A DNA stretch of 44,983 bases from Bacteroidales bacterium (lineage in GTDB: Bacteria > Bacteroidota > Bacteroidia > Bacteroidales > F082): the NCBI GenBank assembly GCA_017539045.1, contig JAFYHS010000002.1:1-44983 (forward strand), written 5' to 3'. The translations under genes were made by a program, and so were the position numbers. The notes below the pieces were generated by a model. It did no database searches. It was not told where the DNA came from and saw only the letters and a program-made list of their open reading frames with translations. Below, in pieces: positions 3,879-20,492 of this stretch; position 1 is the first letter of the stretch; every line of letters starts with the position of its first letter.

Positions 3879-4784
3879 CTAAGATTGATGCAGCGCTGCA
3901 ACCAAATCGTCGCTGATATTGTTCCCCATCTGACGGCACACATCTTGGCTCCATCGTTGTGCCATCGCAATACGTGAGGCTTGGTCGTCCAGACCTTGCA
4001 GCAGGGCATAGATGTAACCCGCGTTGAAATTGTCTCCCGCTCCGACTGTGCTGACGGTCTCAATCGTCTGTACAGGAAAGCTTTCACAGCCCTCAGGCGT
4101 ATAGACATGTATCGAGCGAGGTCCGTCGGTCAATATCAAGGTTTGGCAATGGCGGCTCACCCATTCATAGATGGCGTCACCGTCATGCAGGCCAAGCATA
4201 TAGTCGAAATCCTCCATCGACCCTCGCACAATGTTCGCCATGCTCATATTTTCCACGATATTAGGCATCACTTCCGGCAAATCGACGATATGATTTTTGC
4301 GGAAGTTCACATCATAATAGAGCCATGCTTCCGCTTCGTGAGCGGCACGCAACAAACTGCCCACGACGGGCCTTATGGCAGGGTTGATGGCGAAGAAAGA
4401 GCCGAAAAGCACCACGTCGTCCTTGCCTATTTGGGGCACGTTCCCATCCAGCCAAACAGAGGCATGATCCTTATAAAACAGATATTGCGCGTCGTTGTTT
4501 TCATCCAAGAAAGCCAGCGTGATATGCGACTTAGCTTTCTCGTGGCGGCAGACATATTCCGCCGAAACGCCATTGTCGATCAGGAAGCGGCAGATGATGT
4601 CGCCCACATGGTCGCCGCCCACTTCCGTCAGCATGGCGCAGGGCACGCCAGCCCGTCCGAGCGAAACAATGCTGTTGAAGGTCGAGCCACCTGGAACGGC
4701 TTTCTGCGGTTGGTCGTTCTTGAACAGGATATCCAACACGGTCTCTCCGACGCCTATTACGCGTTTGGGGGTTATGCTATTCAT
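3879..4784 (-). CDS. PfkB-family carbohydrate kinase (fructokinase/ribokinase type)
   Basis: This cytoplasmic kinase transfers phosphate from ATP to a sugar. It shows the family N-terminal signature (GGSTFNSIVSLGRAG near residue 32) and the C-terminal signature VGAGDNFNAG, in which D251 is the catalytic base. At 301 residues it has family length. Fructose is a likely substrate, but sugar specificity cannot be read from the sequence. The start lies only 10 bases after the stop of the restriction gene res, with no room for a separate promoter, so it may be read from the defence operon. Confidence 0.9.
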   Translation of the reverse strand: MNSITPKRVIGVGETVLDILFKNDQPQKAVPGGSTFNSIVSLGRAGVPCAMLTEVGGDHVGDIICRFLIDNGVSAEYVCRHEKAKSHITLAFLDENNDAQYLFYKDHASVWLDGNVPQIGKDDVVLFGSFFAINPAIRPVVGSLLRAAHEAEAWLYYDVNFRKNHIVDLPEVMPNIVENMSMANIVRGSMEDFDYMLGLHDGDAIYEWVSRHCQTLILTDGPRSIHVYTPEGCESFPVQTIETVSTVGAGDNFNAGYIYALLQGLDDQASRIAMAQRWSQDVCRQMGNNISDDLVAALHQS

Positions 4785-4794
4785 AACTGTAGGG

Positions 4795-7700
4795 TTAATC
4801 CATGGACTTTATTATATCCAACATCGCCTGGTAACTATCCACTTTGTGATAGCGGACATGGGATGTTGAAACGTTGTTGAACAGCTTCTTGGCGCAGTCT
4901 ATTTTTGCCTTTTCCACGCCTTTCAGTTGCATGGAATCCATCGAGCCTTTGGTTTCGGCTATGAAGAACACATGCTTGATGCCCATGTTGTCGTTGAAGG
5001 CGATGGCCCAGTCGGGAGCGTAGTTGCCTACGGGTGTCGGGATTTGGAACGACCTCGGCAGTTTGGCATAGACACACACTTCATCCGCTTTATCCAAATC
5101 TTCAGCAAAAGTACGCTCGCCTTGGCTATCGGGGAACACATAATCGAGAATGTGCTTCTTGGCTTCGTAGGCTTTATCCACCGTTTGGCGACTCTTCTCC
5201 TTGGTGAAGATGTCGGAATCGTATTGGTTTTCAGTGCGGTTATAGCTGATGTGCTCCACGATCATCGTGGCTTTCTGCTCGCGGATGATATGGCTTACCT
5301 TGCGGATGAACTCTTCGGGGTTGTTCTTGAACATGTACAACTTCGACCGCTGGATTCCTTTCAGAATTCGCGTGACCGTGCGGCGGGTCAGCGTAGCTGC
5401 TTTGGCGATGTCACCCACCAAGTCATAGGGCACATTGCTGGTTGACACATCACGCATCTCCTTTGTCCGCGTGCTTTGCTCACCAGTGAAATCCAACTCG
5501 TCATCGCCTTGCGTGCCTGTGGTCACCACATACTTCAACTGCGTGACATTCAACTCGCTGTTGATGGCGGCGATGGCTTTCTGAATCAGTTCTTCGCTGT
5601 CGTAATGCACCGTATAGACATAGCGGTGGTTGATTTCGTTCCACAAGGCCTTGAATTCCTTCTTCTCGGCATTGTCGTTCAAATGTTCGTTCACCACTTC
5701 TGCCTTGCCGTTGGCATCTTCCACCATATCGTCCAAAGCGGCGGGATCAAAGATACTCTGTATCAGTTTATGCACCTGCTCTTCAATGGGTTGCAGCTTT
5801 TTGCTCATCGGAGCCAAAGTACCCTTCTCCATGTCGACATGATAGTCTTGCAGGATGTTGCCTTTCTCGTCGATATAATCGTTGTCGTACAAATAACTGA
5901 CGATACTGGCGGCCTCCTGTTCCGAAATGGTGTGTTTTTCCTCACCCACTTTGACGGTAACGCCTTTGAAGTAATCCACCGTGGCCTGTGTCGGACGTTC
6001 GCGCAAAGTGTCTTTGGTTTCTTTTTGCAAAGCATCTACGAAAGAACTGTAGTTCTCATTGGCGATGACAGTCAGTTTATTGGTGTCGTGAACGGCATCA
6101 CCCAAGCGTTCCTTGTCCATGCGGTTGCCGTCATTATCAACGCAGATACGCAGACCACGCCCCACCTCCTGCCGTTTGGCGGTACTGGAGTTGGCGTGAC
6201 GTAAAGTGCAGATTTGGAACACATTGGGATTGTCCCAACCTTCGCGCAAGGCGGAATGAGAGAAAATGAATCGTGTCGGCTCATCAAAACTCAACAGGCG
6301 TTCCTTGTTTTTCAGAATCAGGTCGTAAGCCGAGATGTCATCTGATGTATCCTTGCCGCGTTTTACCTCACTATCAATTGAATGGCCTTTCTTGTCGATG
6401 GAGAAATAGCCGTTGTGTACTTGTGCAGCCGAAAACCGACGCAGGTAATTCTGATAATTGTCTTCAAACAGAGTCAGGTGCTCGTTCAAATAGCGGTTGT
6501 ACTCATCCTCAAACAACTTCCAAAGCGGGCCTTGCACCTCGTTTCCGTCTGCGTCATAGCTCTTGTAGTTGGCCACCTCGTCGATGAAGAACAACGAAAG
6601 GGTCTTGATGCCCTGCTGGAACAAGGCTCTCTCCTTCTCGAAATGCGACTTGATGGTTTCACGAATCTGTATCAGTTGAACGGCTTTTTCACTGACATCG
6701 CCCATCACCTCGCCCTGACGCAGTTGCTTGCCGTTTTGGAAATAGACGGTATTCGTTAGCGGATTGATTTCCGTGATGACAAAATCCTTGTAGGCAGGAA
6801 GTTGCGAAACGGCAAACAACGAATCGCCTTGCTCGAACTTGCAAAGTTGTCGGCGGGTGGCAGCGGCTCCTTTCACCTCGATTTCAAGTCTGATCACCGG
6901 AGCATGATTTTTGGAAAGAATAATGCTGTCGAAATAGATGTAGCTTTGCGTTCCCAACAGGTTCTGCACCGTGATGCCCTTCACCTGGATTTTCTTCACC
7001 AAGCGTTGCTTGTAAGCATCGTAGGCATCAAGCGCATAGATGCAGTTGTGCGAGGTCTTGTGGGTGGCGGAGTAGTTGAGCACAAATAACGGCTTGAAGT
7101 TCTTCAAGGCCCTTTGCGTGGCTTCGCCCTCCATCTTCTGCGGCTCGTCCATAATGATGATGGGACGGTTGGCGGCAATCACGTCGATGGGGCGACGGCT
7201 TTGGAAATCGTCGCGCTTGGAGTAGATGATACGCGCCTCCTTGTTGGCCGCGCCTTCCTTGAATGAGGTGTTGAACGCCTGCACGTTGATGATCATCACA
7301 TTGATGCTGGCGTCGCTGCTGAACGAGTCGATTTGGGTGAGGTTGGCGCTGTTGTAGATGAAATAGCGGGCTTTCTTGCCGTAGAGTTCCATGAAATGCT
7401 CCTCCAGCATGGTGAAACTCTTATAGACTCCCTCACGGATGGCGATGCTGGGCACCACCACGATAAACTTCGACCAGCCAAAGCGCTTGTTCATCTCGAA
7501 CATGGTCTTGATATAGACGTAGGTCTTGCCCGTACCCGTCTCCATCTCCACATCCAACGAGCAGGCGCCGAGGCCGTTGGTGGCCGCTAAGGACTTGCTC
7601 AGCGGGATGTCGTTCTGCACCTGCTGATGGTGGATGTTCTCCAGCAGCTGACTTGAACTGAGTTCCACATCGGCATTGCGGTAACCCACATAGTCCTCCT

Positions 7701-7845
7701 CAAACTCGGCTTTCAACTGCTGTTTCTGCTTGCCTAAGTCGCGGCGATACTGCGCGTTGGTCTTCGAGGGTTGTCCCGCGAATACGCTCACTGTGCTTTC
7801 CACCGCATCGGTCTGGTATTGCTGTATTTTGAATTTAAATTTCAT
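4795..7845 (-). CDS. Type III-like restriction enzyme, Res subunit (helicase-nuclease)
   Basis: This large protein should translocate on DNA using ATP and cut unmodified DNA together with Mod. Helicase motif I is METGTGKT (K107), motif II is DEPQ (233-236), and later motifs are HSALREGWDNPNVF and QEVGRGLRI. A PD-(D/E)xK nuclease site is visible near the C-terminus: P944-D945 and E964-T-K966, separated by 18 residues. At 1016 residues it is of usual size. The start overlaps the end of the TPR gene by four bases (ATGA). The gene is GC-rich like the chromosome (37 of 60 G/C in 7141-7200), unlike the two genes just upstream. In classical type III systems res directly follows mod; here two genes separate them. 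Confidence 0.92.
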   Translation of the reverse strand: MKFKFKIQQYQTDAVESTVSVFAGQPSKTNAQYRRDLGKQKQQLKAEFEEDYVGYRNADVELSSSQLLENIHHQQVQNDIPLSKSLAATNGLGACSLDVEMETGTGKTYVYIKTMFEMNKRFGWSKFIVVVPSIAIREGVYKSFTMLEEHFMELYGKKARYFIYNSANLTQIDSFSSDASINVMIINVQAFNTSFKEGAANKEARIIYSKRDDFQSRRPIDVIAANRPIIIMDEPQKMEGEATQRALKNFKPLFVLNYSATHKTSHNCIYALDAYDAYKQRLVKKIQVKGITVQNLLGTQSYIYFDSIILSKNHAPVIRLEIEVKGAAATRRQLCKFEQGDSLFAVSQLPAYKDFVITEINPLTNTVYFQNGKQLRQGEVMGDVSEKAVQLIQIRETIKSHFEKERALFQQGIKTLSLFFIDEVANYKSYDADGNEVQGPLWKLFEDEYNRYLNEHLTLFEDNYQNYLRRFSAAQVHNGYFSIDKKGHSIDSEVKRGKDTSDDISAYDLILKNKERLLSFDEPTRFIFSHSALREGWDNPNVFQICTLRHANSSTAKRQEVGRGLRICVDNDGNRMDKERLGDAVHDTNKLTVIANENYSSFVDALQKETKDTLRERPTQATVDYFKGVTVKVGEEKHTISEQEAASIVSYLYDNDYIDEKGNILQDYHVDMEKGTLAPMSKKLQPIEEQVHKLIQSIFDPAALDDMVEDANGKAEVVNEHLNDNAEKKEFKALWNEINHRYVYTVHYDSEELIQKAIAAINSELNVTQLKYVVTTGTQGDDELDFTGEQSTRTKEMRDVSTSNVPYDLVGDIAKAATLTRRTVTRILKGIQRSKLYMFKNNPEEFIRKVSHIIREQKATMIVEHISYNRTENQYDSDIFTKEKSRQTVDKAYEAKKHILDYVFPDSQGERTFAEDLDKADEVCVYAKLPRSFQIPTPVGNYAPDWAIAFNDNMGIKHVFFIAETKGSMDSMQLKGVEKAKIDCAKKLFNNVSTSHVRYHKVDSYQAMLDIIKSMD

Positions 7846-9650
7846 TTCTTCTCTTCTTTCTTCAATGATTCCGCTTTCTTTTCATCGGCTTCAGCTTTTG
7901 CAATATAATCGGCTTTCTTTGATGGATCTTTTTCTGATTCTGCAAGTTTTCTATAACATTTTGCGCGGTTATCGTAGGCTTGTTTAATACCATCGTCTAT
8001 TGACAAAGCATGGTCGAATTCAGGAATAGCCTTTTCAGGGAGATTCATAGCCAAATATACTTCTCCCCTGGTTACATACGACACATGGTATGTGTTATCC
8101 AATTTTATCGCATTATTAATATCATCTAAAGCTTTATCCAGTTCACCCATGATCACCCATAAATCAGCTCGATTGTTATATGCGACTGCATAACTTGGGT
8201 CAAGTTCGATAGCCTTGTCATAGTCTTTCATCGCACCTTCCTTGTCATCCCTTAGAATGCCTCGGTTGAAATATGCCACTGCATAATTGGGGTCAAGTTC
8301 TATTGCCTTGTCATAGTCTTTCATCGCACCTTCCTTGTCTCCATTGTCATCCCTTAGAATTCCTCGGTTGAAATATGCCGCTGCATAATTGGGGACAAAC
8401 TCTATTGCCTTGTCATAGTCTTTCATCGCGCCTTCCTCATCTCCCGAATCTTTCCTCAGACTTCCTCGGTTGTTATATGCCACTGCACTATTGGGGTCAA
8501 GCTCTATTGCCTTGTCATAGTCTTTCATCGCACCTTCCTTGTCTCCTTTGTTATACCTTAGATTCCCTCGGTTGTTATATGCCACTGCATAATTTGGATC
8601 CAACTCTATTGCCTTGTCATAGTCTTTCATCGCCTCTTCCTTGTCTCCCTTATCATCCTTTAAATTTCCCCGGTTATTATATGCCGCTGCATTATTCGGG
8701 TCAAGCCCTATTGCCTTGTCATAGTCTTTCATCGCGCCCTCTTTGTCTCCAAAATCCTTCCTTAAAATTCCTCGATTATTATATGCCCATGAAAAATCTG
8801 GTTTAAAATCTATCGCTTGGGTATATAATTCAATAGCTTTTTGCCGGTCTTTTTCAGACATTGCTTGTGTAAACAACTGGCTAGCTTGAGCTTCTTTAGC
8901 AGCTTTTTCGGCTGCAAGGGCATCTTCATTTATTTTCTTTTCTAATTCATCAACATGCTTTTTTAAATCTTCAATTTCAGCTAAAGATTGTTTTGCCTGC
9001 TTCGCTTGTTCGGCAGCAACCATTGCTTGTACTGTCGCAGATGCGACTTGCTCTGTAATTGTCTTCACTTGTATTTGCATCATATTCGAAGCCTCTTCTG
9101 CTTTTAAAGCTTGTATTGTGGCTGTTCTAACTTGCTCTGTAGCAGTTGAAACTTGTTCCGTAGCGAACTTGATTTGAGGTTGAATTTGAATCAATGCTTC
9201 TTTTGCATTATTTGCCTGAGTCGTCGCATTCCCAGCTTGCTCTGTTGCAACATTTACCAGATCTTTTAAGTCGTCCTTCATCTCGGAGAACCTGTTTTCC
9301 ATACGTTTTCTATTGTCATTATTAATATATAATGGTACGCCAATACCAAAGACAACTCCTATCAACCCTATAATAATAGTCAAAATAGTAAGCCAACGAC
9401 TCTGGTCTTCATCTAACTCTGAAACTTTATTTCTAACATCTCCTCGATAAAATTCAACTTCCTTCTCCATCCTCTCCAACTGCTTATGAATAGCTTGGTT
9501 TTCCGCTTGCAGTTGCAAAACAGTTTCCTCCAATACTTGCACTTCCGTCTTTTGAGGCTGCACCGTCATTGGTACAGTTTTCTTTTGCTGTCCGAAAACA
9601 CTCATACATAACAGCAATGATATAACAATTAGAATTGATTTATATTTCAT
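7842..9650 (-). CDS. Membrane-anchored coiled-coil/TPR repeat protein in a restriction locus
   Basis: From ATG 9650 the product has 602 residues: a signal peptide (MKYKSILIVISLLLCMSVFG), a coiled coil at about 35-80 predicted outside the inner membrane, a transmembrane segment (RWLTILTIIIGLIGVVFGIG) at about 86-108, a long Ala/Gln/Thr-rich coiled coil at about 110-250, and eight to nine TPR units at about 260-570. If the signal is cleaved, the TPRs would face the cytoplasm. The ATG at 9671 overlaps the stop of the AlbA_2 gene (TAATG) but would place seven polar residues before the signal peptide. No catalytic motif is visible. TPRs usually bind proteins, so a sensor or scaffold for the restriction complex is plausible. 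The gene is AT-rich. Confidence 0.8.
   Translation of the reverse strand: MKYKSILIVISLLLCMSVFGQQKKTVPMTVQPQKTEVQVLEETVLQLQAENQAIHKQLERMEKEVEFYRGDVRNKVSELDEDQSRWLTILTIIIGLIGVVFGIGVPLYINNDNRKRMENRFSEMKDDLKDLVNVATEQAGNATTQANNAKEALIQIQPQIKFATEQVSTATEQVRTATIQALKAEEASNMMQIQVKTITEQVASATVQAMVAAEQAKQAKQSLAEIEDLKKHVDELEKKINEDALAAEKAAKEAQASQLFTQAMSEKDRQKAIELYTQAIDFKPDFSWAYNNRGILRKDFGDKEGAMKDYDKAIGLDPNNAAAYNNRGNLKDDKGDKEEAMKDYDKAIELDPNYAVAYNNRGNLRYNKGDKEGAMKDYDKAIELDPNSAVAYNNRGSLRKDSGDEEGAMKDYDKAIEFVPNYAAAYFNRGILRDDNGDKEGAMKDYDKAIELDPNYAVAYFNRGILRDDKEGAMKDYDKAIELDPSYAVAYNNRADLWVIMGELDKALDDINNAIKLDNTYHVSYVTRGEVYLAMNLPEKAIPEFDHALSIDDGIKQAYDNRAKCYRKLAESEKDPSKKADYIAKAEADEKKAESLKKEEKK
8184..8786 (-). repeat. 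Six near-identical tandem TPR-coding repeats
   Basis: Six copies of a 102-base unit encode TPRs of the form AYNNRGxLRxDxGDKEGAM. The sixth copy is 93 bases long: it lacks 9 bases seen in copy five between two TTGTC direct repeats, which indicates replication slippage. The near identity at DNA level points to recent expansion. Confidence 0.85.
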
Positions 9651-9670
9651 ATGTTGTGTTTTGAATTTCA

Positions 9671-10702
9671 TTATTTAAAAAGCAATGGATTAATCCCAAT
9701 ATTATTAAGGTCTTTTGTAATTGATTTTGTTTTTTCAACGAGCTTAATATCTCTCCACTCAACTACTTTTTTCCGTTCTGGAGCATTATCTGCCATTAAT
9801 GAATAACTAATCGGTGGCAACGAGCAGATATCGTCAATACCATCACAATTCAATTCAATCGTTTCTCTTCCTCCCCTGATTCCCGGTAATAATGGGTCAT
9901 ATCTTGCCGGGCCATGTTCACCTTTGAACGAAGTCAAATCTCTAACCGTATTATCTCCAAAATACTCATAACAATTATTCTCTCTATCAATGTTGTCAGG
10001 ATGTTTATCCTTTTCTGGGATTATTTCCAAAGGAATATGAATGAAATAATTAATATACTTAGCATATACCTTACCTACATTAACCAGTCTAAACTTTAAC
10101 TCATATTTGGTTTCTGTATAATGTTTATCTTCTCGATGGTCATATAATTTAGCTATATTCAATGGCTTTTCTATGGTATTTGTTATTGTTTTATGCAACT
10201 CAAATTCCATTTCAATCACTGGATGCTTGCTCCTGTTCATCACATCGCGAATCTCATAATCTTCCATTGCTTCAATAATAGCGTTTCTTCGCCGATGATA
10301 CTGATGACTCAACCTATTTTGATGTGCAGTAATACCTTGTGGTACTTCAACTACAAAAAAACCACTCTGATCATTATAAGGAATGTAATTTATTTCCACG
10401 TTTTCAATAACAGGTTGAATATTTGAGGATAACAACTGAGAAAAACTGTCTTTTGACATTAAGGTATTAGAAATGGGGGTTAACTTTTCAGGAACAGAAT
10501 GCCCCTTACCAACAGCTTTTTCCATAATTCCATAAATAATTACTCCTCCATTTGCATTGGCCATTGCACTAACATCCTTCGCCAATTCCTCCTTCCAACT
10601 TGGTTTATTCTTATCAATGGTACTTTTATAATCTAATACCGTAGATTCTTCAATTTCGTTGTCTATCAAAGACTGCAAATCGTCTATTGTCCTTATTTTC
10701 AT
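9671..10702 (-). CDS. AlbA_2 (Schlafen-type) domain protein
   Basis: The first 170 residues match the AlbA_2/Schlafen N-terminal family: an acidic start (EIEES), LDYKS at 23-27, and the hallmark ELAKDVSAMANANGGVIIYG at 39-58. Such domains are often annotated as DNA-binding or ATP-binding, and some Schlafen proteins cut RNA. The remaining 170 residues are not a known helix-turn-helix module and I do not recognise them. The gene begins 6 bases after mod and its stop overlaps the ATG at 9671, so it is translationally linked to the TPR gene. It is very AT-rich (15 of 60 G/C in 10141-10200). It is likely a defence accessory or effector; its activity is unknown. Confidence 0.8.
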   Translation of the reverse strand: MKIRTIDDLQSLIDNEIEESTVLDYKSTIDKNKPSWKEELAKDVSAMANANGGVIIYGIMEKAVGKGHSVPEKLTPISNTLMSKDSFSQLLSSNIQPVIENVEINYIPYNDQSGFFVVEVPQGITAHQNRLSHQYHRRRNAIIEAMEDYEIRDVMNRSKHPVIEMEFELHKTITNTIEKPLNIAKLYDHREDKHYTETKYELKFRLVNVGKVYAKYINYFIHIPLEIIPEKDKHPDNIDRENNCYEYFGDNTVRDLTSFKGEHGPARYDPLLPGIRGGRETIELNCDGIDDICSLPPISYSLMADNAPERKKVVEWRDIKLVEKTKSITKDLNNIGINPLLFK

Positions 10703-10708
10703 AGCGCT

Positions 10709-12664
10709 TTATATTATCCTTCTTACCGTCTCTTTCGAATACTCCTCCCAAATCTGCTCAAAGTTGTCCGCTACATTGTCCGTGGCGAGGCTGCTGTCGC
10801 GAAGGACGAAGTAGTAGGGATGTTGGCGGGCGATTTCGGTGATGGTGGTCTCGTTCACGTCCTTGTCGAAGCAGGCCATGAGGTAGCCTTCGGCGACGCT
10901 CCAGACGGTCTTGCCGGCGATTTCGCGTTGCTCTATCTTGGCCGACAGCTCGATGCCGAGCTCTATCATGGCTTGGAAGAGCAGGTCCTCGTCGGTGCGG
11001 TCGTGCTTGATGTTGTCCTCGAAGAGCAGGTTCTCGTTGAATTGCTCGGGCGAGTAATACACATCCTGCATGTTGGAGCTGTCGAGTTTCAGCACGCGGA
11101 AGCCGATGTCCAATAGTCTGGCCTCTGAGCCTGCCGAAGAGCCAGCAAACAAACCTTCTTCAACTTTCTTCTTTTCCAATTCTTCAACGATTTTCTTGCC
11201 TGCTCGACGGATGCGCTCTTTGCCGATTTCGCAGATGTTCTTGTAGCCAGCCTTGTAGGCCTCGCTCTTTTCATCCGTTGCTTCAGGTAGTTGCACCATA
11301 ATGAACTTGCGGTTTCCACAATCCTCTGCATTGAGTTGCATGACGGCGTGGGCAGTGGTGGCGGAACCGGAAAAAAAGTCAAGAATGCAAATGTTATTAT
11401 CTTGCCTCAAAATATAAAGAAGATATTTTACCAAGCCTACTGGTTTAGAAAAATCAAATGGAATACCGATAGAGTTTAATTCTTTTGCACTATGTCTATT
11501 CTCATATTTATTAATGAAATTTGTAGGTGTTTGACCTTCTTCTTGCCTATCTCTAAGCCATATTTTTGTATATACATTCCACGTAGACTGCTTCCCATGT
11601 TCATCAAGCAACGGGGATTGTTGGGTTTTTACAAAAAGAATTTCATCATCTGAGAGCATTTTCTTATAAGACGGTTCCACCACTCTCCATCTTTTCCCAA
11701 CAGGAGGTATACACTTGGTCCCATCAGGACAATCAATGTAATATCGTGCATTTGCAGAACGTTCTAATGTCAAGGATGCCTGATAAAGCCCCATCGTTCT
11801 ATATCGTTCTCCCTTTCTAGGCCCCTCCGTTTCCACTTTGTTATAAACATTAGATATTAGTTCGTCACTCATATCACATTTGAATTGCCTAGTTGCATGT
11901 CGATCTCTTGTAAAGACTAAAACATAATCTATATTGGGACTAAAGAAATCTCCATTGTTTCCACCCGATTTCATTAATCGAGATATTGTAGTTAAATAAT
12001 TGTCACTACCAAATACTTCTTTACAAATCTTAGTAAGATTTTCGAGCTCTTCTCCTCCAATACTGATAAATATCACCCCATCCTCACTCAGCAAGTCCTT
12101 CGCCACTTTCAGCCGAGGGTAAATCATATTGAGCCAGTCGGTGTGGAAGCGTCCATTACTCTCGGTATTGGCCACGAGGCGGTTGCCTTCCTCGTCCTCC
12201 TGCCCGCTGTTGTGGACATAGTCGCCTGTGGTCTGGGCAAAGTCGTCGTTATACACGAAGTCGTTGCCCGTGTTGTAAGGCGGGTCAATGTAAATCATCT
12301 TCACCTTGCCGAGGTAGTTCTCGCGCAGCAGCTTCAGCACTTCGAGGTTGTCGCCCTCAATGTAGAGGTTCTGCGTGTTGTCGAAGTCCACGCTCTCCTC
12401 GCGGCAGGGGCGCAGCGTGTCGGTGGTCGGCGCGTTGGCCAAGCGGATGGCGTTGCGCTTGTCGGGCCAGGTGAACTGGTAGCGTTCCTCGGGGCCTTCC
12501 ACGATGTCCTTCGAGAGTTCCTGCCGGAGCTGGTCGAAGTCGATGGCCGCTTCCGGCTTCCCGTTCTCGTCGAGCCGCTCGGTGAGGCAGTTGGGGAAGA
12601 GTTCGGCAATCTTCTTTATGTTTTCGTCCACGATGTTGTGGGTTTGGAGTTTTAGTTTTTCCAT
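10709..12664 (-). CDS. Type III-like adenine DNA methyltransferase (Mod), with foreign-looking recognition domain
   Basis: This should methylate adenine (N6) at a specific site and give Res its specificity. Motif order is that of beta-class enzymes: DPPYNTGNDF at 127-136 (motif IV) precedes LDFFSGSATT at 428-437 (motif I, SAM binding). Its 651 residues are typical. The flanks are GC-rich (38 of 60 in 12361-12420), but residues about 200-430, the target-recognition region, are AT-rich (21 of 60 in 11881-11940). The break on one side coincides with motif I, which suggests replacement of the recognition domain by recombination. The start is one base after the DUF4365 stop. Confidence 0.92.
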   Translation of the reverse strand: MEKLKLQTHNIVDENIKKIAELFPNCLTERLDENGKPEAAIDFDQLRQELSKDIVEGPEERYQFTWPDKRNAIRLANAPTTDTLRPCREESVDFDNTQNLYIEGDNLEVLKLLRENYLGKVKMIYIDPPYNTGNDFVYNDDFAQTTGDYVHNSGQEDEEGNRLVANTESNGRFHTDWLNMIYPRLKVAKDLLSEDGVIFISIGGEELENLTKICKEVFGSDNYLTTISRLMKSGGNNGDFFSPNIDYVLVFTRDRHATRQFKCDMSDELISNVYNKVETEGPRKGERYRTMGLYQASLTLERSANARYYIDCPDGTKCIPPVGKRWRVVEPSYKKMLSDDEILFVKTQQSPLLDEHGKQSTWNVYTKIWLRDRQEEGQTPTNFINKYENRHSAKELNSIGIPFDFSKPVGLVKYLLYILRQDNNICILDFFSGSATTAHAVMQLNAEDCGNRKFIMVQLPEATDEKSEAYKAGYKNICEIGKERIRRAGKKIVEELEKKKVEEGLFAGSSAGSEARLLDIGFRVLKLDSSNMQDVYYSPEQFNENLLFEDNIKHDRTDEDLLFQAMIELGIELSAKIEQREIAGKTVWSVAEGYLMACFDKDVNETTITEIARQHPYYFVLRDSSLATDNVADNFEQIWEEYSKETVRRII

Positions 12665-12665
12665 A

Positions 12666-14474: not shown

Positions 14475-14606
14475 AACCGATTCTTTCAATCATATTTTAT
14501 TTAAAACACATCGCGACCATATTATACTTTTAGACAAATAACTCGATGGACTTTGTGTTTTCATCCTTTTGGTTGTTGGTTTATTGTTTTAGTATGTCTA
14601 TATTAT

Positions 14607-15215
14607 TCAACTATATATCCCCAAAGCCTCAAACAGCTCTGCCATTTGGGAATATGTGTAATCTCTGTCTGTTTCCTCTTTTTCCTTCATGGATTGGGCT
14701 GCATTATAAAGGGCTTTCTTTAAATCACCTCCTGTTTTCTCGAAATACTGGTGAAGCGAGTGCTTTTTGAAAAACTCTTCTGTTTTCTCATAAACACATT
14801 TTTTGTTCAATGCTTGAAGCAACTCTGGTTGATTTTGGAAACATCGGGTTGTATATGCAAAATAAAACAAGAAAAAGATTTCGGTACAACGTTCATTTTC
14901 GATGAAACGGATTTCATATTGATAATCGGACTTCTTTATTTCATGAACGCCGTTCATGCGATTCTTGAATTTTTCATATTCATGTTTTTCCTTCCCTTTT
15001 TTTTTGTTGTCCATGTCAATAACACATATTATTAAAGAATAGCCTGCATCTATTGCTTTATCTATCTCTTGCTCAAGATAGTCCAAACCCGTTGAATGCT
15101 TGGGGAATGTTGGCTTTATTGTAAGTTGTCTGAAATCATCTTTCAGCGAATTGAAATAATAGTATTCCGTAATCGCCTCTCCAATCACCAAAATAGAATC
15201 TTTAATCTTCTTCAT
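14607..15215 (-). CDS. RloB-like TOPRIM protein (AbiL/RloAB-type partner)
   Basis: The 202-residue product has the TOPRIM pattern of RloB proteins: E13 in VIGEAITEYYYF and D67-x-D69 in VIDMDN, which would bind metal for nucleic-acid cleavage. The rest is helical and charged. It overlaps the upstream ATPase gene by 14 bases, and a split ATPase plus TOPRIM pair is the known layout of RloA/RloB, lactococcal AbiL-type and, more distantly, PARIS and OLD systems. I use ATG 15215; the frame extends to a TTG at 15224. A 132-base gap without a visible gene follows before the DUF4365 start codon. The assignment as an abortive-infection effector is from family knowledge. Confidence 0.8.
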   Translation of the reverse strand: MKKIKDSILVIGEAITEYYYFNSLKDDFRQLTIKPTFPKHSTGLDYLEQEIDKAIDAGYSLIICVIDMDNKKKGKEKHEYEKFKNRMNGVHEIKKSDYQYEIRFIENERCTEIFFLFYFAYTTRCFQNQPELLQALNKKCVYEKTEEFFKKHSLHQYFEKTGGDLKKALYNAAQSMKEKEETDRDYTYSQMAELFEALGIYS

Positions 15216-16485
15216 TGCTCTCAATATATAATAAAGGTGAACCTAATTGGGGGATTGCACCTAACCGGCCGTTCCTGTATGATTTGTATAATGACAGATT
15301 CTTATGCAATCCATATTCATCTGCGCGGGTGTATTCTGAATACGCCCCAGCGCGGTCTTTCTCCGCAAAGAACACAAAATCACGATGTGTATTCAACAAG
15401 TCCTCATTTAATAATGACGTTTCCTGACTTGTAAATATCAATTGCGACTCCTTAGAATTCATAATGAATGTGTTTAAATAAAAGAGCAGCAAATCATCAT
15501 GTAATTCAGAATCGATTTCATCAATAAGAAACACATGATTCTCCGTTATCGCTTTATATAGAGACGACAAGTTCGACAAAAATTTCTTAGTACCTTCTGA
15601 CTGTTCATCATAACTCAATACGAACTTATCATTTCCTGCCGCACAAACAAAATAAACCTTTATTCGCTCAATTTGGAATACTCTATTTTCAGAAAAAGGC
15701 GATTCATCCTCAAACACCGCTCTCCTTCTGGGGAATTCTTCAGTGACTGTTTCCGTATAGAAATCAACTATATTGAAATCTGCCTTTTGCAACAATTGAA
15801 GGTAGAATCGCTTTGCCTCAGCATTTTCTTCAATTGATTTTAACACTCTTTGGGGGGAACCTTGGTGACTATTTATCTCGTGCACATATAATTCCAACCA
15901 ATAATAAAGGTCCGCTATTGGTTTCGCGTCTGTTTCAAATGATATTTTTTGGAAAACAGACAAAACCGAATGGTTGTTAAGGGTATTTTGCAAAAAAGCG
16001 TCCTTAGTCCTAGCCGAGATTTTAAGGCTTGAACCAAATTTAATTTCCGCCTGAGCTTCAGGTGACACAAAACGCCTTTCGTAAAAGAGGGATTTTGCTC
16101 CATTAGGATACCATTCCATCAGTTCATCAATAATATGTTCCTTAATATATGAAACAGTATAATCATACCTTATATGGTTGGCATAAAAAGAAACAAACAT
16201 CCTAGTTGGTTCTTTTGAACTTAACGCAAACGGCCTTCTTGTCCTAACAGAAGATTGCCGATCACTTCTCGCAAAGAACAAAAGTTCAAAGACATTTTGT
16301 ATCGCCAATAACATATTTGATTTTCCAGATGCATTGGCACCATAAATCACTGCCAATTTATTAACACGCTTCTCGCTACCCATTTCTACAGAAGCCCATT
16401 CTTCTTCTTTCGATTTGGTTTCAAAGTTCAGTGTTTGCCGTTCCTTTATGGATAGGAAATTCTCGGCCCAAAATTCTCGTATCAT
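15202..16485 (-). CDS. RloA-like AAA/ABC-type ATPase (AAA_15/AAA_21)
   Basis: This 427-residue protein starts like SMC/OLD-type ATPases (IREFWAENFLSIKERQTLNF). Walker A is GANASGKS at 49-56, a signature-like SEGTK lies at 296-300, and Walker B is HVFLIDE at 317-323 followed by SELHDD. No nuclease domain is fused; that part is in the overlapping RloB-like gene. In related two-gene systems the ATPase senses phage and releases or activates the TOPRIM partner. The gene is AT-rich (22 of 60 in 15541-15600) and is separated from the DUF4391 gene by an AT-rich spacer that may carry its own promoter, so the pair could work as an independent module. Confidence 0.85.
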   Translation of the reverse strand: MIREFWAENFLSIKERQTLNFETKSKEEEWASVEMGSEKRVNKLAVIYGANASGKSNMLLAIQNVFELLFFARSDRQSSVRTRRPFALSSKEPTRMFVSFYANHIRYDYTVSYIKEHIIDELMEWYPNGAKSLFYERRFVSPEAQAEIKFGSSLKISARTKDAFLQNTLNNHSVLSVFQKISFETDAKPIADLYYWLELYVHEINSHQGSPQRVLKSIEENAEAKRFYLQLLQKADFNIVDFYTETVTEEFPRRRAVFEDESPFSENRVFQIERIKVYFVCAAGNDKFVLSYDEQSEGTKKFLSNLSSLYKAITENHVFLIDEIDSELHDDLLLFYLNTFIMNSKESQLIFTSQETSLLNEDLLNTHRDFVFFAEKDRAGAYSEYTRADEYGLHKNLSLYKSYRNGRLGAIPQLGSPLLYIESNEED

Positions 16486-16596
16486 TTTTGTGTATTTTTG
16501 TTATTTCGCTACAAAAATAGATATAATAATTGAAATAGATACAAAAATAATTGAATTTTTTGTAAAAAAGTTACGAATATAAGATAAAAACAGCTT
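16486..16596 (-). promoter_or_regulatory. AT-rich spacer with direct repeats and candidate promoter for the RloAB-like pair
   Basis: The 111-base spacer holds two copies of TACAAAAATA (16510-16519 and 16540-16549), each followed by an AATTGAA element. Read on the minus strand each copy contains TATTTTTG, which fits the -7 consensus, so the region could hold tandem promoters or an operator. No TTG stands at the ideal distance. Confidence 0.4.
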
Positions 16597-17202
16597 TTAT
16601 GGCTCTAAATTCTCTTTCAACTCCTGAATCTGTTTATACAACCCATACCTTTTCATCGGTTGTTTCTCAGCCTTCAGTTTCTTCTCAAGTGTTTCAATCT
16701 GCTTGATGACTTTCTGCTTTTCTCCGTCAATCGTTATCTGCTCTTCGATAGTCACGCCTTCCATCACCTCGAAACTGCCAATGGTGGTTACCAGATTCTC
16801 CCAAACCTTGTCCAAGTCAAGTCCCATCAAAGGCAATGCGGCATCTTCCAACAATTCCCAATCCATGACAAAAAGCTTTTCGTGAACGACAGCAAAACGC
16901 ACCATGTAGTTGTATGCCAAGGCGAAAATCATGTTCTGCTTGATCAACTTGGTCAAAAGCAGGATGTTTTTCTCGTCATAGTGCTTGCGTTTCAGCGTGA
17001 CGAGCAACACATAGAACTCCTTCACGCGTTCCCCTTCCTTCAAGCCAGGCACGGTGGAAGGCGAAACCACATTCACGATGTCGATGCGGCTGACGTCGGC
17101 ATCAAAGGCATCGCGCTGCGCCGACTTCAAGCCAAACTTCTCGTAAATGGCCTTCTTCGGCAGCGACTTCTTGATTTCCGTTGTGGCAGGCAGGGCAAAC
17201 AT
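16597..17202 (-). CDS. DUF4391 protein
   Basis: This 201-residue protein matches the DUF4391 family as I know it: an N-terminus beginning FALPATTEIKKSLPKKAIY, a core with VSPSTVPGL and VKEFYVLLVTLK, and a charged coiled coil at about 155-201. DUF4391 genes are known as companions of SNF2-type helicase genes in restriction-like loci; the biochemical role is not known to me. Its ATG overlaps the helicase stop (TAATG), so the two proteins are probably made in a set ratio and may form a complex. Base composition is that of the chromosome, unlike the AT-rich genes that follow. Confidence 0.8.
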   Translation of the reverse strand: MFALPATTEIKKSLPKKAIYEKFGLKSAQRDAFDADVSRIDIVNVVSPSTVPGLKEGERVKEFYVLLVTLKRKHYDEKNILLLTKLIKQNMIFALAYNYMVRFAVVHEKLFVMDWELLEDAALPLMGLDLDKVWENLVTTIGSFEVMEGVTIEEQITIDGEKQKVIKQIETLEKKLKAEKQPMKRYGLYKQIQELKENLEP

Positions 17203-20200
17203 TATCTCACGATTAAAAAGTCAATCAGTTCAAAGCCATCCAAGCCTTTGATCTCCTTGGTGAACAGCTCGCCTTGAATGCCTTCAAGGAAGCTGTCGAT
17301 GTCGCTATTCTCCTTGACGGTAATGATGCTGTTGATGGCGTCGCTCAGCAGCTTGGAGTATTGGGTCATGCGGAAGCCGTCGCGGGTTTCTTTGTTAAAC
17401 TCACGGCACAAAGCGGTTTGGGGCATATTCTTACCTTTGCAGAGGCTGCGGAACTTGTCAAGTAGCTCCTTGGGCGAAAGGTGGTTGACCACCACTGAGC
17501 CGTCGTTGCGCAAATAGACGATATAGAATGGGTGAAGACGGTTCTTTTTGTCGATGTTGACACCCTTGTTGCGGTTCTTCAGCACAAAGATGACACCTGG
17601 CTCGGTGAACTCGTTGTGGCCGACAACGGCGTGGAGGCCGAAGGGCGTATGCTCCACATCCTCGTGGGTCTTCATATATTCCAGCAGGTCAAGGCGGAAC
17701 TCGTTGAGGCCAAGATCCATGATGGAAACGCCGTTGTTCATCTCCTCGATGTCGACGACTTCTTCCTGAAGCTTCTTCAGTTGAGCCTTGCGGTATTCCA
17801 AATCACCTTTCTCCTCGGGAGAAATGGGGTTGTCGTCGCCAGTAGAAGTGAGCACAGAGACCTTCATACGGGCTTCGACACGGCCTTTGAGGTCGATGTA
17901 CTCGTCAAGCGTCATGTCCGGCCAGTAGTTCACCAGCTGGATAGCTTCGTTCTTGGAGCCGATACGGTCGATACGACCAAAGCGCTGGATGATGCGCACG
18001 GGGTTCCAGTGGATGTCGTAGTTGATGAGGTAGTCGCAATCCTGCAAGTTCTGACCTTCGGAAATGCAGTCGGTGGCGATGAGGACTTCTATCTCCTCAT
18101 GGATATTGGGATAGATGGACTCTTTTTCCTTGGATATGGGCGAAAAGAGGGTGAGCACTTTGTTGAAGTCGAGTTTTTCCTTCAACTTCAAAGTGCTACG
18201 CGCGTCCACGTCGCCTGTGACCAAGGCGGTGTCCATCCCGTATTTCTGTTTGATGGGTTTGGCCAGGTTGTCGTAGAGATAAACGGCTGTATCGGAGAAT
18301 GCTGTAAAGATAAGCACCTTCTTGTTGTCGCCGTTGATGGGATGAGCGAACTTGTCGCGAAGGTCGGCAATGAGCTGCTGAAGCTTGCTGTCGTGCTCAG
18401 GGGTGATGTCGTCGAGCATCAAGCGGGTAAACTCCAACTCTTCCTTATCGCTCTGGAGGTATTGCCGCCAGCTGATATAGTCGATGTCTTCCAAGGCAAT
18501 CCTGTTTTTCTTGGTACCCACGAAGGCGTCGTTTTCCAAATCGTCAATATCAAAATCATAGCCTTCAGCCTCTTCCACATCGATAAAAGCATCATGTCGG
18601 TCTATGGTGTCGATTGTCTTGGAAATGAGGTTCATCACTCGTTGCAGTGTGAGACGGAAAGAATTGACTGAACTTTCAAGGCGCTTCAACATCAAGATAC
18701 ACATGATGCGACGGATGCCCATTTCACGGCCTGCCAAGGAAAGTCCAGCGCCATAGGTTTCGGGGTCAAGCGCATATTTCTCAACCTTGCTGGGCAGGAT
18801 AAACGCAGAAGGCGTATAGATGGCCAGGTTGAGCTTTTGGAGTTGGTTGAAGATTTCGTTGTAGTTGATGGCCGACGGAAGGTCGGTGAGCGAAGGACGT
18901 CGCGACAACGGGGGAAGCCTGAGCGGAAACTTGCCGACGGCTTCGGTATTGTAATAGGCCTCGATGTGCTTACGGCTTCGGGCAATGGTGACCGAATCAA
19001 GCACCTCGAAGAAATCAAAGCTGAGCATCCCAAGGAGCCTTTCGGTGTTGCGCTCTTCGTTGGGGAGTTTTGACCAGAAGTTATAGGCTTTTTGAGCCTG
19101 ACGGAAAATGTCGTCGATGGAGGCATTGGTATTGAGCAGCGCATCCATCCTTTTGGTGTCGCCCTCGTATGCCAGCTGAAGCTGGTTTTTGAGGTCGTTG
19201 AAGCGGTTGTTGACGGGTGTGGCCGAGAGCATCAGTACCTTGGTCTTCACTCCGGCACGAATCACCTTGTTCATGAGGCGCAAATAACGGTTCTCACGCG
19301 GGTTGTCGTCATCATCGTCTCTTGAAATCTTGCCACCATTGCGGAAGTTGTGCGATTCGTCAATCACAACCAGATCATAATTGCCCCAGTTGATTTTCTC
19401 CAACTCCACACCATTCGACTTGCCGCTATCTCGTGAAAGGTCGGAATGAAACAGCACGGCGTATGCAAGCCTGTCGCCTGCGATGGGGTTGGTGATGTAG
19501 TTGGTGCGATAGGTCATCCAGTTGTCGCAAAGTTTCTTGGGACATAGCACCAAAACATTCTTGTTGCGGGTCTCGTAGTATTTGATGACGGCCAGCGCGG
19601 TGAAGGTCTTACCCAGACCCACACTGTCGGCAAGGATGCATCCGTTGTATTTCTCCAGCTTGTTGATGATGGCCAACGCGGCGTCTTTTTGGAAGTCGTA
19701 GAGCTTGTTCCAGATTTGGCTGTCCTTGAAGCCAGTGGCCTCGTTGGGGAGAACGTCCTCGGAAATATCTTCAAGAAACTCGTTGAAGATGTTGTAGAGG
19801 GTAACGAAATAAATGAACTCTGGTGAGTTTTCGCGATAGATGTTGGAGATATGATCGATGATGTCGTCAGTGACATCGGCAAAATCCTTTTCGTTGTTCC
19901 AAAGCTCGTTGAACACACGGAGATACTGACGGGCGTTAGCCCCATCCACCTTGTTGACGAAATTCATCATACTGTTGCCACGCTCACAGCCCAGGTCGGT
20001 TGTGGTGAAGCCGTTTACAGGCGTATAGGTGTGGGTGTCGTCGTTTTCAACATTGATGAATCCGGGGAGGGTGTTATTAGTGGTGTTCGATTTGAAACGG
20101 ACTTTGTTTTTGATCCATTCGGCGCATTCGATGGCGATGGCCTTTTGTGTAAGCTGGTTGCGGAGACGGACTTCAAAGGGAGAGCCATAAAGAGTACGCT

Positions 20201-20435
20201 CACGGTCGATGCGCGGGATGTAGAACTCGCGCCGCTGTTTGTTGGTTCTTTCGGCTGTAAACGTGGGCGAAGTGAAAATAAACCTCAACTCCTTGATGTC
20301 TTTGAGCTGCTCCTTTAGCTCCTGAAAGGCATAGATGGAGAAACAGCAAGCAGCCATTGAAATCTTGCTTGCCGACTTAATCTCCACGGTTAAGTCATCA
20401 CGTAGCGTCTTGGTGACGTTATCAATCAGTTCCAT
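17202..20435 (-). CDS. SNF2-type helicase, first gene of the defence operon
   Basis: This 1077-residue protein is a superfamily 2 DNA translocase. Walker A is SVGLGKT with K276, Walker B is DESH at 359-362, motif III is SAT at 404-406, and the second lobe has KVLIFTAFSDTA, ATDCISEGQNLQ and QRFGRIDRIGSKN. The first 230 residues resemble the N-terminal region of helicases that carry a PLD-like domain, but I see no HxK catalytic motif, so nuclease activity is doubtful. The C-terminal 250 residues are unassigned. It is preceded by a TATCTTTG promoter element and leads a nine-gene operon. Similar helicases act in DISARM-like and restriction-like loci. Composition is chromosomal (31 of 60 in 18001-18060). 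Confidence 0.88.
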   Translation of the reverse strand: MELIDNVTKTLRDDLTVEIKSASKISMAACCFSIYAFQELKEQLKDIKELRFIFTSPTFTAERTNKQRREFYIPRIDRERTLYGSPFEVRLRNQLTQKAIAIECAEWIKNKVRFKSNTTNNTLPGFINVENDDTHTYTPVNGFTTTDLGCERGNSMMNFVNKVDGANARQYLRVFNELWNNEKDFADVTDDIIDHISNIYRENSPEFIYFVTLYNIFNEFLEDISEDVLPNEATGFKDSQIWNKLYDFQKDAALAIINKLEKYNGCILADSVGLGKTFTALAVIKYYETRNKNVLVLCPKKLCDNWMTYRTNYITNPIAGDRLAYAVLFHSDLSRDSGKSNGVELEKINWGNYDLVVIDESHNFRNGGKISRDDDDDNPRENRYLRLMNKVIRAGVKTKVLMLSATPVNNRFNDLKNQLQLAYEGDTKRMDALLNTNASIDDIFRQAQKAYNFWSKLPNEERNTERLLGMLSFDFFEVLDSVTIARSRKHIEAYYNTEAVGKFPLRLPPLSRRPSLTDLPSAINYNEIFNQLQKLNLAIYTPSAFILPSKVEKYALDPETYGAGLSLAGREMGIRRIMCILMLKRLESSVNSFRLTLQRVMNLISKTIDTIDRHDAFIDVEEAEGYDFDIDDLENDAFVGTKKNRIALEDIDYISWRQYLQSDKEELEFTRLMLDDITPEHDSKLQQLIADLRDKFAHPINGDNKKVLIFTAFSDTAVYLYDNLAKPIKQKYGMDTALVTGDVDARSTLKLKEKLDFNKVLTLFSPISKEKESIYPNIHEEIEVLIATDCISEGQNLQDCDYLINYDIHWNPVRIIQRFGRIDRIGSKNEAIQLVNYWPDMTLDEYIDLKGRVEARMKVSVLTSTGDDNPISPEEKGDLEYRKAQLKKLQEEVVDIEEMNNGVSIMDLGLNEFRLDLLEYMKTHEDVEHTPFGLHAVVGHNEFTEPGVIFVLKNRNKGVNIDKKNRLHPFYIVYLRNDGSVVVNHLSPKELLDKFRSLCKGKNMPQTALCREFNKETRDGFRMTQYSKLLSDAINSIITVKENSDIDSFLEGIQGELFTKEIKGLDGFELIDFLIVR

Positions 20436-20492
20436 ATACAGTATCTCAACAGGTTAAATACCACCTACAATGGTTCAATCAAAAGCTGGGGG

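What the first reader, a model, noticed from the sequence alone, without database searches (positions are those of the whole stretch)
4795..20435. Nine-gene composite defence operon around a SNF2-DUF4391-Mod-Res backbone
A helicase, DUF4391, RloA-like ATPase, RloB-like TOPRIM protein, DUF4365 protein, Mod, AlbA_2 protein, membrane TPR protein and Res follow on one strand. Junctions seen directly: TAATG at SNF2/DUF4391 and AlbA_2/TPR, a 14-base overlap at RloA/RloB, one base between DUF4365 and mod, six between mod and AlbA_2, and ATGA at TPR/res. Type III restriction and RloAB are known alone; this assembly, with a membrane-anchored protein, is not one I can name. The inference is a multi-layer anti-phage system.
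Basis: partly seen in the sequence, partly recalled or inferred. Interest (0 to 1): 0.8.

Follow-up and report, generated by a model that had tools for sequence, protein, structure and literature searches.

The report
Restriction operon with swappable cargo slots
The nine genes are not one new machine but a widespread four-gene DNA-restriction operon whose internal gaps hold exchangeable, mostly defence-like genes, showing how bacteria may plug extra anti-phage modules into an existing immune system.

Summary
The nine ORFs, coordinates and junctions are real, but they are not parts of one conserved system. Four (SNF2-type helicase, DUF4391, Mod, Res) form a type III restriction-modification backbone: all 79 of 96 examined loci that reach a Res match have this order (74 by ORF calling, 5 after gap searches; one Res is a remnant). 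It also occurs in E. coli and on plasmids. The other five are AT-rich cargo in two of three slots: DUF4391|Mod (RloA, RloB, DUF4365 nuclease) and Mod|Res (AlbA_2, membrane TPR). Of the 74 loci, 50 carry cargo (108 genes, 68 clusters), with lower GC3 than the backbone in 46 of 49. Cargo differs between loci with helicases 95-98.6% identical, with breaks at gene borders. Same-family cargo shares a slot in 73 of 91 pairs (37 expected). No other examined locus has this set. RloAB has a promoter-like site and also occurs outside the operon. Embedding of defence genes in immune operons is known (type I R-M, Hma), and a helicase 5' of type III mod has been reported. I did not find this three-slot arrangement in ten searches of an incomplete library. 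Anti-phage function was not tested.

The parts
17202..20435 (-). Backbone 1: SNF2-family SF2 helicase/translocase, 1077 aa, labelled 'HKD+Snf2' by PADLOC (C3a139), but without an HxKx4D motif in its N-terminal 240 aa in nearly all relatives
   Evidence: Pfam Helicase_C/SNF2-rel_dom; PADLOC C3a139 422 bits; GLGKT and DE[SA]H in 74 of 74, HxKx4D in 2 of 74
16597..17202 (-). Backbone 2: DUF4391, 201 aa
   Evidence: Pfam PF14335 94.8 bits; model pLDDT 93.5; no PDB fold match at E<=0.001
15202..16485 (-). Slot-2 cargo: RloA / AbiLi-like ABC-type ATPase
   Evidence: AAA_21 72 bits; PADLOC AbiLi 212 bits; invariant G49, N51-K55 and D322, E323 in 9 aligned
14607..15215 (-). Slot-2 cargo: RloB / AbiLii-like protein with E...DxD residues as in TOPRIM domains (TOPRIM reading recalled)
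   Evidence: PF13707 78 bits; AbiLii 41 bits; invariant E16, E20, D70, D72 in 9 aligned
16512..16545 (-). Promoter-like site TTTG-N22-TATTTTTG ending 26 bp before the RloA start codon (candidate own promoter of RloAB)
   Evidence: Only strict match on the minus strand in 4701-22200; 4 in the whole window against 1.2 expected, 3 of 100 shuffles reach 4
12666..14489 (-). Slot-2 cargo: DUF4365-type putative PD-(D/E)XK nuclease with helical C-terminus (probable start ATG at 14474)
   Evidence: Homologues directly 5' of mod in L063, L082, L088 and L110; invariant NDK, WDG, QVK in the three aligned; weak fold match of a mediocre model to chains of SPARDA complexes
10709..12664 (-). Backbone 3: type III Mod, beta-class methyltransferase
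   Evidence: N6_N4_Mtase 94 bits; MTase_III 716 bits; only match in the held genome, which is 81% complete
9671..10702 (-). Slot-3 cargo: SLFN_AlbA_2-domain protein
   Evidence: PF04326 52.9 bits; homologue at the same place after mod in L061 (69% over 346 aa; 70% in the alignment)
7842..9671 (-). Slot-3 cargo: TPR protein with two hydrophobic stretches (probably membrane-anchored) and 102-bp (34-aa) tandem repeats
   Evidence: TPR families; hydrophobic stretches 8-30 and 90-118; tandem repeats 8245-8787, 5.3 copies
4795..7845 (-). Backbone 4: type III Res, SF2 ATPase plus PD-(D/E)XK nuclease
   Evidence: RE_endonuc 109 bits, ResIII 56 bits; REase_III 963 bits
4791..22195 (.). Whole island relative to the empty chromosomal site between pfkB and an alpha/beta-hydrolase gene (gene names by my reading of the sequence)
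   Evidence: In genome G810 (L185) the two flanks are adjacent: homology runs to window 4790 and from 22196, with 123 bp between them in L185

Best explanation
A four-gene type III restriction-modification chassis (SNF2 helicase, DUF4391, Mod, Res) carries exchangeable cargo, much of it of defence-type families, at its internal gene borders. SHOWN by comparison: the chassis order recurs across phyla; cargo sits in three slots (SNF2|DUF4391, DUF4391|Mod, Mod|Res); sense cargo is more AT-rich than the chassis; cargo differs between closely related chassis, with breaks at gene ends in the pairs inspected; cargo families prefer slots. In this window slot 2 holds RloAB (AbiL-like ATPase plus TOPRIM-type pair, with its own promoter-like site) and a DUF4365 putative nuclease, and slot 3 holds an AlbA_2 protein and a probably membrane-anchored TPR protein. 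INFERRED: Mod marks self DNA and, with Res, cuts unmarked incoming DNA. SNF2-DUF4391 is an auxiliary translocase pair of the R-M complex. The cargo, expressed with it, is a second line that acts on phages escaping restriction or when restriction is blocked, as PrrC does inside a type I locus. Exchange probably runs by homologous recombination between shared chassis genes that flank each slot.
For: Order: 79 of 96 loci reach a Res match and all 79 have the order, 74 by ORF calling and 5 with DUF4391 found in the SNF2-Mod gap (for L050 full-length); in L072 Mod is frameshifted and Res a 171-aa remnant. Annotated plasmid and E. coli records show it too. Cargo: 50 of 74 loci, 108 genes of at least 100 aa, 68 clusters, 49 singletons; GC3 lower than SNF2/Res in 46 of 49 loci, Wilcoxon 6e-13; slot preference 73 of 91 same-cluster pairs, 36.7 expected, 0 of 2000 shuffles. 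Empty and filled pair L106/L046 (SNF2 98.6%): homology stops at the mod stop and resumes at the res start, around a RhuM gene. Window against L061 (SNF2 95%): slot 2 and the TPR gene replaced, AlbA_2 kept, Mod middle unalignable. Families in the first cargo set (103 genes): YhcG/DUF1016 8, RhuM 5, AlbA_2 6, Abi_C 5, RloB 2, and single AbiH, AbiU2, AbiJ_NTD3, GmrSD_N.
Against: 24 of 74 loci have no cargo of at least 100 aa, so cargo is optional. L122 has about 10 kb after SNF2-DUF4391 without Mod or Res, and L048 has the order Mod-cargo-Res-SNF2-DUF4391. Low GC3 may be a trait of these families rather than of recent arrival. Nine of 108 cargo genes are antisense, so not all can share the transcript. 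RloA/RloB-like genes lie outside the operon, antisense, 2.3-3.9 kb beyond Res in L075, L104 and L105 (RloB only seen in L075 and L104, near the locus ends), which fits loose clustering as well as slots. Many cargo genes matched no family shown. Recombination is inferred; no integrase or repeat was sought at slots. No function was measured, and the DUF4391 fold gave no significant match.
Confidence: 0.82

Rival explanations
1. A dedicated nine-component anti-phage machine in which all nine proteins act together.
For: One strand, tight or overlapping junctions at six of eight borders; junctions with sense cargo are about as tight as backbone ones (140 of 179 against 120 of 147 at 20 bp or less).
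Against: The five cargo proteins occur together in the window only among 99 loci; the L061 backbone (SNF2 95%) has other cargo; RloAB has its own promoter-like site, a RloAB-family pair is antisense in the same slot of L089, and the pair has no backbone gene near it in 7 of 7 other genomes fetched.
Confidence: 0.06
2. An ordinary defence island: unrelated genes piled up next to a type III R-M system with no special relation to its gene borders.
For: Cargo is diverse and AT-rich; RloAB-like genes also lie just outside the operon in L075, L104 and L105; the whole operon sits at a chromosomal site that holds other defence-type genes in some related genomes.
Against: The four-gene order and strand are kept, the breaks fall at the mod stop and the res start in L046/L106, 99 of 108 cargo genes are in sense and families prefer slots (relatedness not corrected).
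Confidence: 0.12
3. SNF2-DUF4391 is itself the oldest cargo: an independent two-gene defence module that became fixed beside Mod-Res.
For: Published type III systems work with Mod and Res alone, and the extra helicase of the Eco86II type was not needed for methylation and not seen in the partly purified enzyme (PMC8259958); L048 is permuted and L122 has SNF2-DUF4391 without Mod-Res in reach.
Against: The pair is found with Mod and Res in all 79 loci that reach a Res match, unlike any cargo family; its GC3 is close to that of Res (means .51.47 and .50). The loci were gathered by SNF2 or DUF4391, so Mod-Res loci without the pair were not sampled.
Confidence: 0.3

Closest known systems
Type III R-M with an extra helicase-like ATPase 5' of mod (Eco86II group; PMC8259958; passages and section 17 seen)
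   Same: Mod plus Res with an additional SF2 helicase-like gene upstream of mod, said there to lie close by in more than 500 genomes; role unknown
   Different: DUF4391 and internal cargo are not mentioned in what I saw; here DUF4391 lies between helicase and mod. Whether the two helicases are homologous could not be tested
Type I R-M loci with embedded genes (C. jejuni rloA/rloB, PMC2928727 one passage; TgvAB in V. cholerae, PMC11411939 passages; DarTG2 in E. coli, PMC12255303 passages; PrrC, PMC12707154 and PMC3710099 passages)
   Same: Defence or toxin genes, including genes named rloA and rloB, lie within R-M loci; TgvAB protects when expressed without the type I genes
   Different: Those are hsd loci; here the host operon is a type III system with three slots and slot-preferring cargo
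Guilt-by-embedding survey (Payne et al. 2024 bioRxiv, not held; seen only as cited in PMC11411939, PMC12255303 and PMC12988326)
   Same: General idea that new defences sit inside immune operons; PADLOC PDC and HEC models match some cargo here
   Different: Whether it covers this backbone could not be checked
AbiL (AbiLi/AbiLii) and PARIS
   Same: ATPase plus a TOPRIM-type partner, as RloA/RloB
   Different: RloA scores 212 bits for AbiLi and 64 for AriA; the partner matches RloB/AbiLii and no AriB model
DISARM, BREX, Hma
   Same: Methyltransferase with SNF2-type helicase
   Different: DrmD, BrxH and HmaA scores are far below C3a139 or the curated cut-off, and the other core genes were not seen in the rows shown

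Membership tests
Type III restriction-modification | Beta-class Mod with DPPY and motif I | tested here: met
   DPP[YFW] in 74 of 74 loci; a motif-I-like pattern in 62 of 70; window Mod MTase_III 716 bits
Type III restriction-modification | Res with SF2 ATPase and C-terminal PD-(D/E)XK nuclease | tested here: met
   Window: RE_endonuc and ResIII. Relatives: Walker A pattern 66 of 74 and PD..ETK pattern 66 of 74
Type III restriction-modification | One-strand methylation of an asymmetric site and cleavage 25-27 bp away | not testable with these tools
   needs SMRT sequencing and biochemistry
Type III with extra 5' helicase (Eco86II group) | Helicase homologous to that of Eco86II | tested here: inconclusive
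   Strain NCTC86 is not among the 54 and 24 E. coli records with near SNF2 DNA; whether it is in the collection was not checked and the Eco86II sequence was not at hand
AbiL / RloAB | Adjacent AbiLi-type ATPase and RloB-type protein with conserved residues | tested here: met
   AbiLi 212 and AbiLii 41 bits; RloB 78 bits; E16, E20, D70, D72 invariant in 9 aligned; P-loop invariant in 9. Anti-phage activity not testable here
PARIS | AriA plus AriB | tested here: not met
   AriA 64 bits, below AbiLi; the partner gives only RloB (Pfam) and AbiLii (PADLOC)
DISARM | DrmD at curated cut-off plus DrmA, DrmB, DrmC | tested here: not met
   DrmD 141.5 bits against cut-off 610; a DrmA model gives 71 bits to the SNF2 protein; no DrmB or DrmC in the rows shown for the nine proteins (capped at 25 rows for two of them)
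BREX | PglZ, BrxC and PglX | tested here: not met
   BrxHI model 85 bits to the SNF2 protein; no PglZ or BrxC in the rows shown
Hma | HmaA, HmaB, HmaC | tested here: not met
   HmaA 72 bits against C3a139 422 bits; HmaB and HmaC not in the rows shown

The most novel reading that the evidence does not exclude
SNF2-DUF4391-Mod-Res is a distinct four-subunit subtype of type III restriction, spread through Bacteroidota, Bacillota, Pseudomonadota and others, that has evolved as a modular platform: three defined gene-border slots accept slot-specific defence cassettes (in this sample the DUF4365 nuclease stands just before mod in 5 of 5 loci, and the YhcG cluster lies between mod and res in 9 of 9), whose products plug into or are triggered by the restriction complex.
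Probability: 0.4. Interest if true: 0.68.

Novelty: new variant of a known kind. Interest (0 to 1): 0.5.

Why it matters
It replaces 'a strange nine-gene system' by a rule: one restriction operon type with preferred cargo positions. The positions can be mined for new defence genes; 49 of 108 cargo genes are sequence singletons in this sample. Pairs of near-identical operons with and without a given cargo allow direct tests of whether that cargo needs the R-M system. Helicase DNA of this type is found in 88 of 5426 complete E. coli genomes, in 60 over at least 80% of the query, and three of the four E. coli records opened show the chassis order, so it can be studied outside uncultured gut bacteria. 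It also points to two untested subunits, the helicase and DUF4391. DUF4391 is named in one paper of the held library.

Tried and rejected
Single nine-gene machine: rejected because the five cargo proteins occur together in no other of 99 loci. DISARM, BREX, Hma and PARIS as names for parts: scores or partner genes do not fit. A strict 'HKD nuclease' reading of the SNF2 N-terminus: motif pattern in 2 of 74 only. Structure route to DUF4391 function: a confident model (pLDDT 93.5) but no match at E<=0.001; Holliday-junction resolvases (Hjc) recur in the top list only at E about 0.1-0.6 with TM-scores of 0.25 or less, so not used as evidence. The DUF4365 model is mediocre (pLDDT 70, three sequences); its five matches at E 2e-4 to 8e-4 are chains of SPARDA complexes, TM 0.28 or less, taken as weak support only (that these chains bear the nuclease is recalled). 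PDB sequence searches for RloB, RloA, DUF4391 and AlbA_2 gave nothing usable. BLASTP between the window's RloB and the L089 RloB is not significant; that link rests on Pfam. Homology with the Eco86II helicase could not be tested.

Counting, and what was mended: my first ORF calls dropped genes that overlap an over-long neighbour; a tblastn check showed DUF4365 homologues missed in L088 and L110. A second caller gave no change in the number of loci in order, a third mended it. First set: 70 loci in order, 23 bare, 103 cargo genes, 14 antisense, GC3 lower in 41 of 44, slot pairs 53 of 71. Third set, used here: 74, 24, 108, 9, 46 of 49, 73 of 91; 98 of the first 103 genes are kept and 10 added. 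The family scans and the pair table used the first set. L042 and L132 count as bare but have gaps of 987 and 615 bp before mod. Cargo under 100 aa was not counted. Of the 17 loci that reach no Res, 15 end by lack of sequence, L122 lacks it and L048 is permuted. The shuffle test does not correct for phylogeny. Cargo of the five loci completed only by gap search was not counted. Pfam and PADLOC container scans show at most 25 families, of 41 (Pfam, slot 3), 139 and 123 (PADLOC).


Full report
WHAT IS THERE. The nine ORFs of the finding exist at the stated places and strand, and the junctions match those described. Pfam gives SNF2/Helicase_C, DUF4391, AAA_21, RloB, a sub-threshold DUF4365, N6_N4_Mtase, SLFN_AlbA_2, TPR families, and ResIII plus RE_endonuc. 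PADLOC gives C3a139 'HKD+Snf2', AbiLi, AbiLii, MTase_III and REase_III. The finding leaves out two wider gaps, 111 and 117 bp, which are the two edges of RloAB. The first holds TTTG-N22-TATTTTTG just before RloA. It is the only strict match on that strand in 17.5 kb, but the pattern occurs four times in the window against 1.2 expected, so it is a candidate and no proof. Mod has one match in the held genome, which is 81% complete.

COMPOSITION. GC3 is .69.66.59 and .68 for SNF2, DUF4391, Mod and Res, and .35.38.34.28 and .35 for RloA, RloB, DUF4365, AlbA_2 and TPR. The operon is a mosaic of two sets.

THE BACKBONE IS GENERAL. DUF4391 was matched in 27 of 395 genomes of the phylum, own included (24 over the cut-off), and the window's own version in 9 of 393 of the order, own included. 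Eighteen regions were fetched, and 80 more loci came from a helicase-alignment scan of named genomes. With the window and after removal of three duplicates there are 96 loci. With HMMs built from them and mended ORF calls, 79 reach a Res match and 74 of these show SNF2, DUF4391, Mod and Res in that order. In the other five (L050, L084, L095, L101, L115) the gap search found DUF4391 between SNF2 and Mod (in L050 that search saw an 82-aa piece, while one search matched 230 of 232 positions there). L072 is decayed: Mod in two frames, Res a 171-aa remnant. Of the 17 loci without Res, 15 run out of sequence, L122 has about 10 kb without Mod or Res, and L048 is permuted. Record titles include Bacteroidota, Bacillota, Opitutales and a planctomycete MAG, besides others; MAG labels may err. 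Annotated records of Methylotuvimicrobium and Raoultella plasmids and of E. coli show the order, one E. coli with an IS3 between helicase and DUF4391. On an Enterococcus faecium plasmid the 'hypothetical protein' in that place matches the DUF4391 HMM at 67 bits. A Sphingobium plasmid copy is broken by IS elements, and the fourth E. coli record opened holds only a helicase cut short. Helicase DNA is found in 88 of 5426 E. coli genomes, 60 of them over at least 80% of the query.

CARGO SLOTS. Of the 74 loci, 24 have no cargo of at least 100 aa and 50 do. The 108 cargo genes fall 11 in slot 1, 49 in slot 2, 47 in slot 3 and 1 between Mod pieces; 99 are in sense and 9, all in slot 2, antisense. 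They form 68 BLAST clusters, 49 of them singletons. Mean GC3 of sense cargo is .38 against .54 for SNF2/Res in the 49 loci compared, lower in 46. Junctions with sense cargo are about as tight as backbone junctions (140 of 179 against 120 of 147 at 20 bp or less); longest-ORF starts inflate overlaps in both. Same-cluster pairs share a slot in 73 of 91 cases against 36.7 expected, reached in 0 of 2000 shuffles, not corrected for relatedness (all). Families by Pfam in the first set: slots 1 and 2 (56 proteins) Abi_C 4, DUF4365 3, AAA_21 3, 23S_rRNA_IVP 3, RloB 2, GIY-YIG 2, and single AbiH, AbiU2, Fic, AAA_13 and others. Slot 3 (46 proteins and the one between Mod pieces): YhcG/DUF1016 8, RhuM 5, AlbA_2 5, Fic 2, AbiJ_NTD3, GmrSD_N and others.

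TURNOVER. L046 and L106 have helicases 98.6% identical. Their DNA is alignable to the mod stop and again from the res start, and a RhuM gene lies between in L046 only. The window and L061 have helicases 95% identical. Slot 2 differs wholly, the 5' part of mod aligns at 87%, the middle of mod (target recognition, by its place) hardly aligns, the 3' part of mod with AlbA_2 aligns at 73%, the TPR gene is replaced by another AlbA_2-type gene, and Res aligns at 69%. In L104 and L108 the only unaligned block in the operon is the middle of Mod. Not all close pairs differ: L051 and L057 (96.7%) share one slot-3 cluster, and L104, L105 and L108 are all bare. In Raoultella a 2703-base gene fills slot 2; in E. 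coli UPEC 26-1 a 42-codon gene there is 93% identical over 41 aa to its residues 837-877, so it is a remnant.

THE WINDOW'S CARGO. RloAB: RloB is matched in 24 of 198 genomes of the order, own included. In the seven best others fetched, RloA and RloB are adjacent on one strand and no backbone gene is near. In L089 a RloAB-family pair is in slot 2 but antisense. In L105 the pair, and in L075 and L104 RloB near the locus end, lie outside the operon beyond Res. RloB keeps E16, E20, D70 and D72 in nine aligned proteins, as expected of a TOPRIM domain (the TOPRIM reading is recalled). DUF4365: matched in the window's genome only among 198 of the order, but in four other chassis loci, each time the gene directly before mod. 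The invariant NDK, WDG and QVK in three aligned suggest a PD-(D/E)XK nuclease; the model's best PDB matches are chains of SPARDA complexes, weakly. AlbA_2: its L061 homologue (70%) sits in the same place. Looser relatives in five fetched loci, of 18 other genomes matched, lie away from the backbone. TPR: two hydrophobic stretches and 102-bp repeats; no other locus matches it at E 1e-4.

THE CHROMOSOMAL SITE. In G810 of the same genus the flanking pfkB and hydrolase genes are adjacent, so the island spans about 4791-22195. Of seven genus members fetched, three were scanned with Pfam: McrBC-like genes stand directly before pfkB in G814, an AAA protein with further AAA and HATPase genes in G785, and an ORF6N gene lies near it in G786. 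This suggests a chromosomal hotspot.

MECHANISM. Shown are anatomy, conservation and turnover. Inferred: Mod-Res restricts unmodified DNA, SNF2-DUF4391 assists, and cargo gives further layers. Precedents for embedded genes that act with or beside an R-M system are PrrC, TgvAB and DarTG2 in type I loci (passages of PMC12707154, PMC3710099, PMC11411939, PMC12255303). An extra helicase 5' of type III mod was reported as widespread and of unknown role (PMC8259958, passages and section 17). A passage of PMC5608340 mentions an SNF2/RAD54 helicase upstream of an R-M system in Prevotella intermedia; its relation was not tested.

NOVELTY. Embedding is known and type III with an extra helicase is known. 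I did not find the DUF4391-containing four-gene subtype or its cargo slots in ten searches of the held library, which lacks preprints and most subscription journals. The Payne et al. preprint was not held and may cover part of this. Verdict: a new variant of a known kind; the nine-gene set itself is one combination among many. The recount changed numbers, not odds.

Noticed in passing
window 3879-4790 and relatives L185-L191: The spot just upstream of pfkB looks like a chromosomal hotspot in the genus: empty in G810, McrBC-like genes in G814, AAA and HATPase genes in G785, an ORF6N gene nearby in G786. In the window pfkB starts 10 bp after res, so its expression may depend on the operon.
   Followed up: partly
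L204 (MT836075.1) 1486-11791: An 'UNVERIFIED: Bacteriophage sp.' faecal record of 13.2 kb is mostly this operon, SNF2-DUF4391-two cargo genes-Mod-Res: either a mislabelled bacterial contig or carriage on a mobile element.
   Followed up: partly
window 11237-12008: The middle of mod does not align with L061 although both ends do; the same holds for L104/L108, and Mod GC3 is below SNF2/Res in 69 of 74 loci, suggesting exchange of recognition domains.
   Followed up: partly
L075, L104, L105 near their 3' ends: RloA/RloB-like genes lie antisense a few kb beyond Res, outside the operon, so the module may move into and out of the slots.
   Followed up: no
L048 1-10234: Permuted operon: Mod-cargo-Res-SNF2-DUF4391.
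   Followed up: no
L205, L206, L207, L210: In these Enterobacteria records a helix-turn-helix or WYL-type regulator gene, partial in L206, lies just before the SNF2 gene.
   Followed up: no
PMC7784981 table (one passage seen): DUF4391 is listed as enriched in hosts nonpermissive to the epibiont TM7x (3 of 3, against 1 of 10 in each of the two other groups), a possible hint of a role beyond phages.
   Followed up: no
window 27482-30283: Long overlapping ORFs on opposite strands (933 aa +, 867 aa -); the minus one is probably a composition artefact.
   Followed up: no
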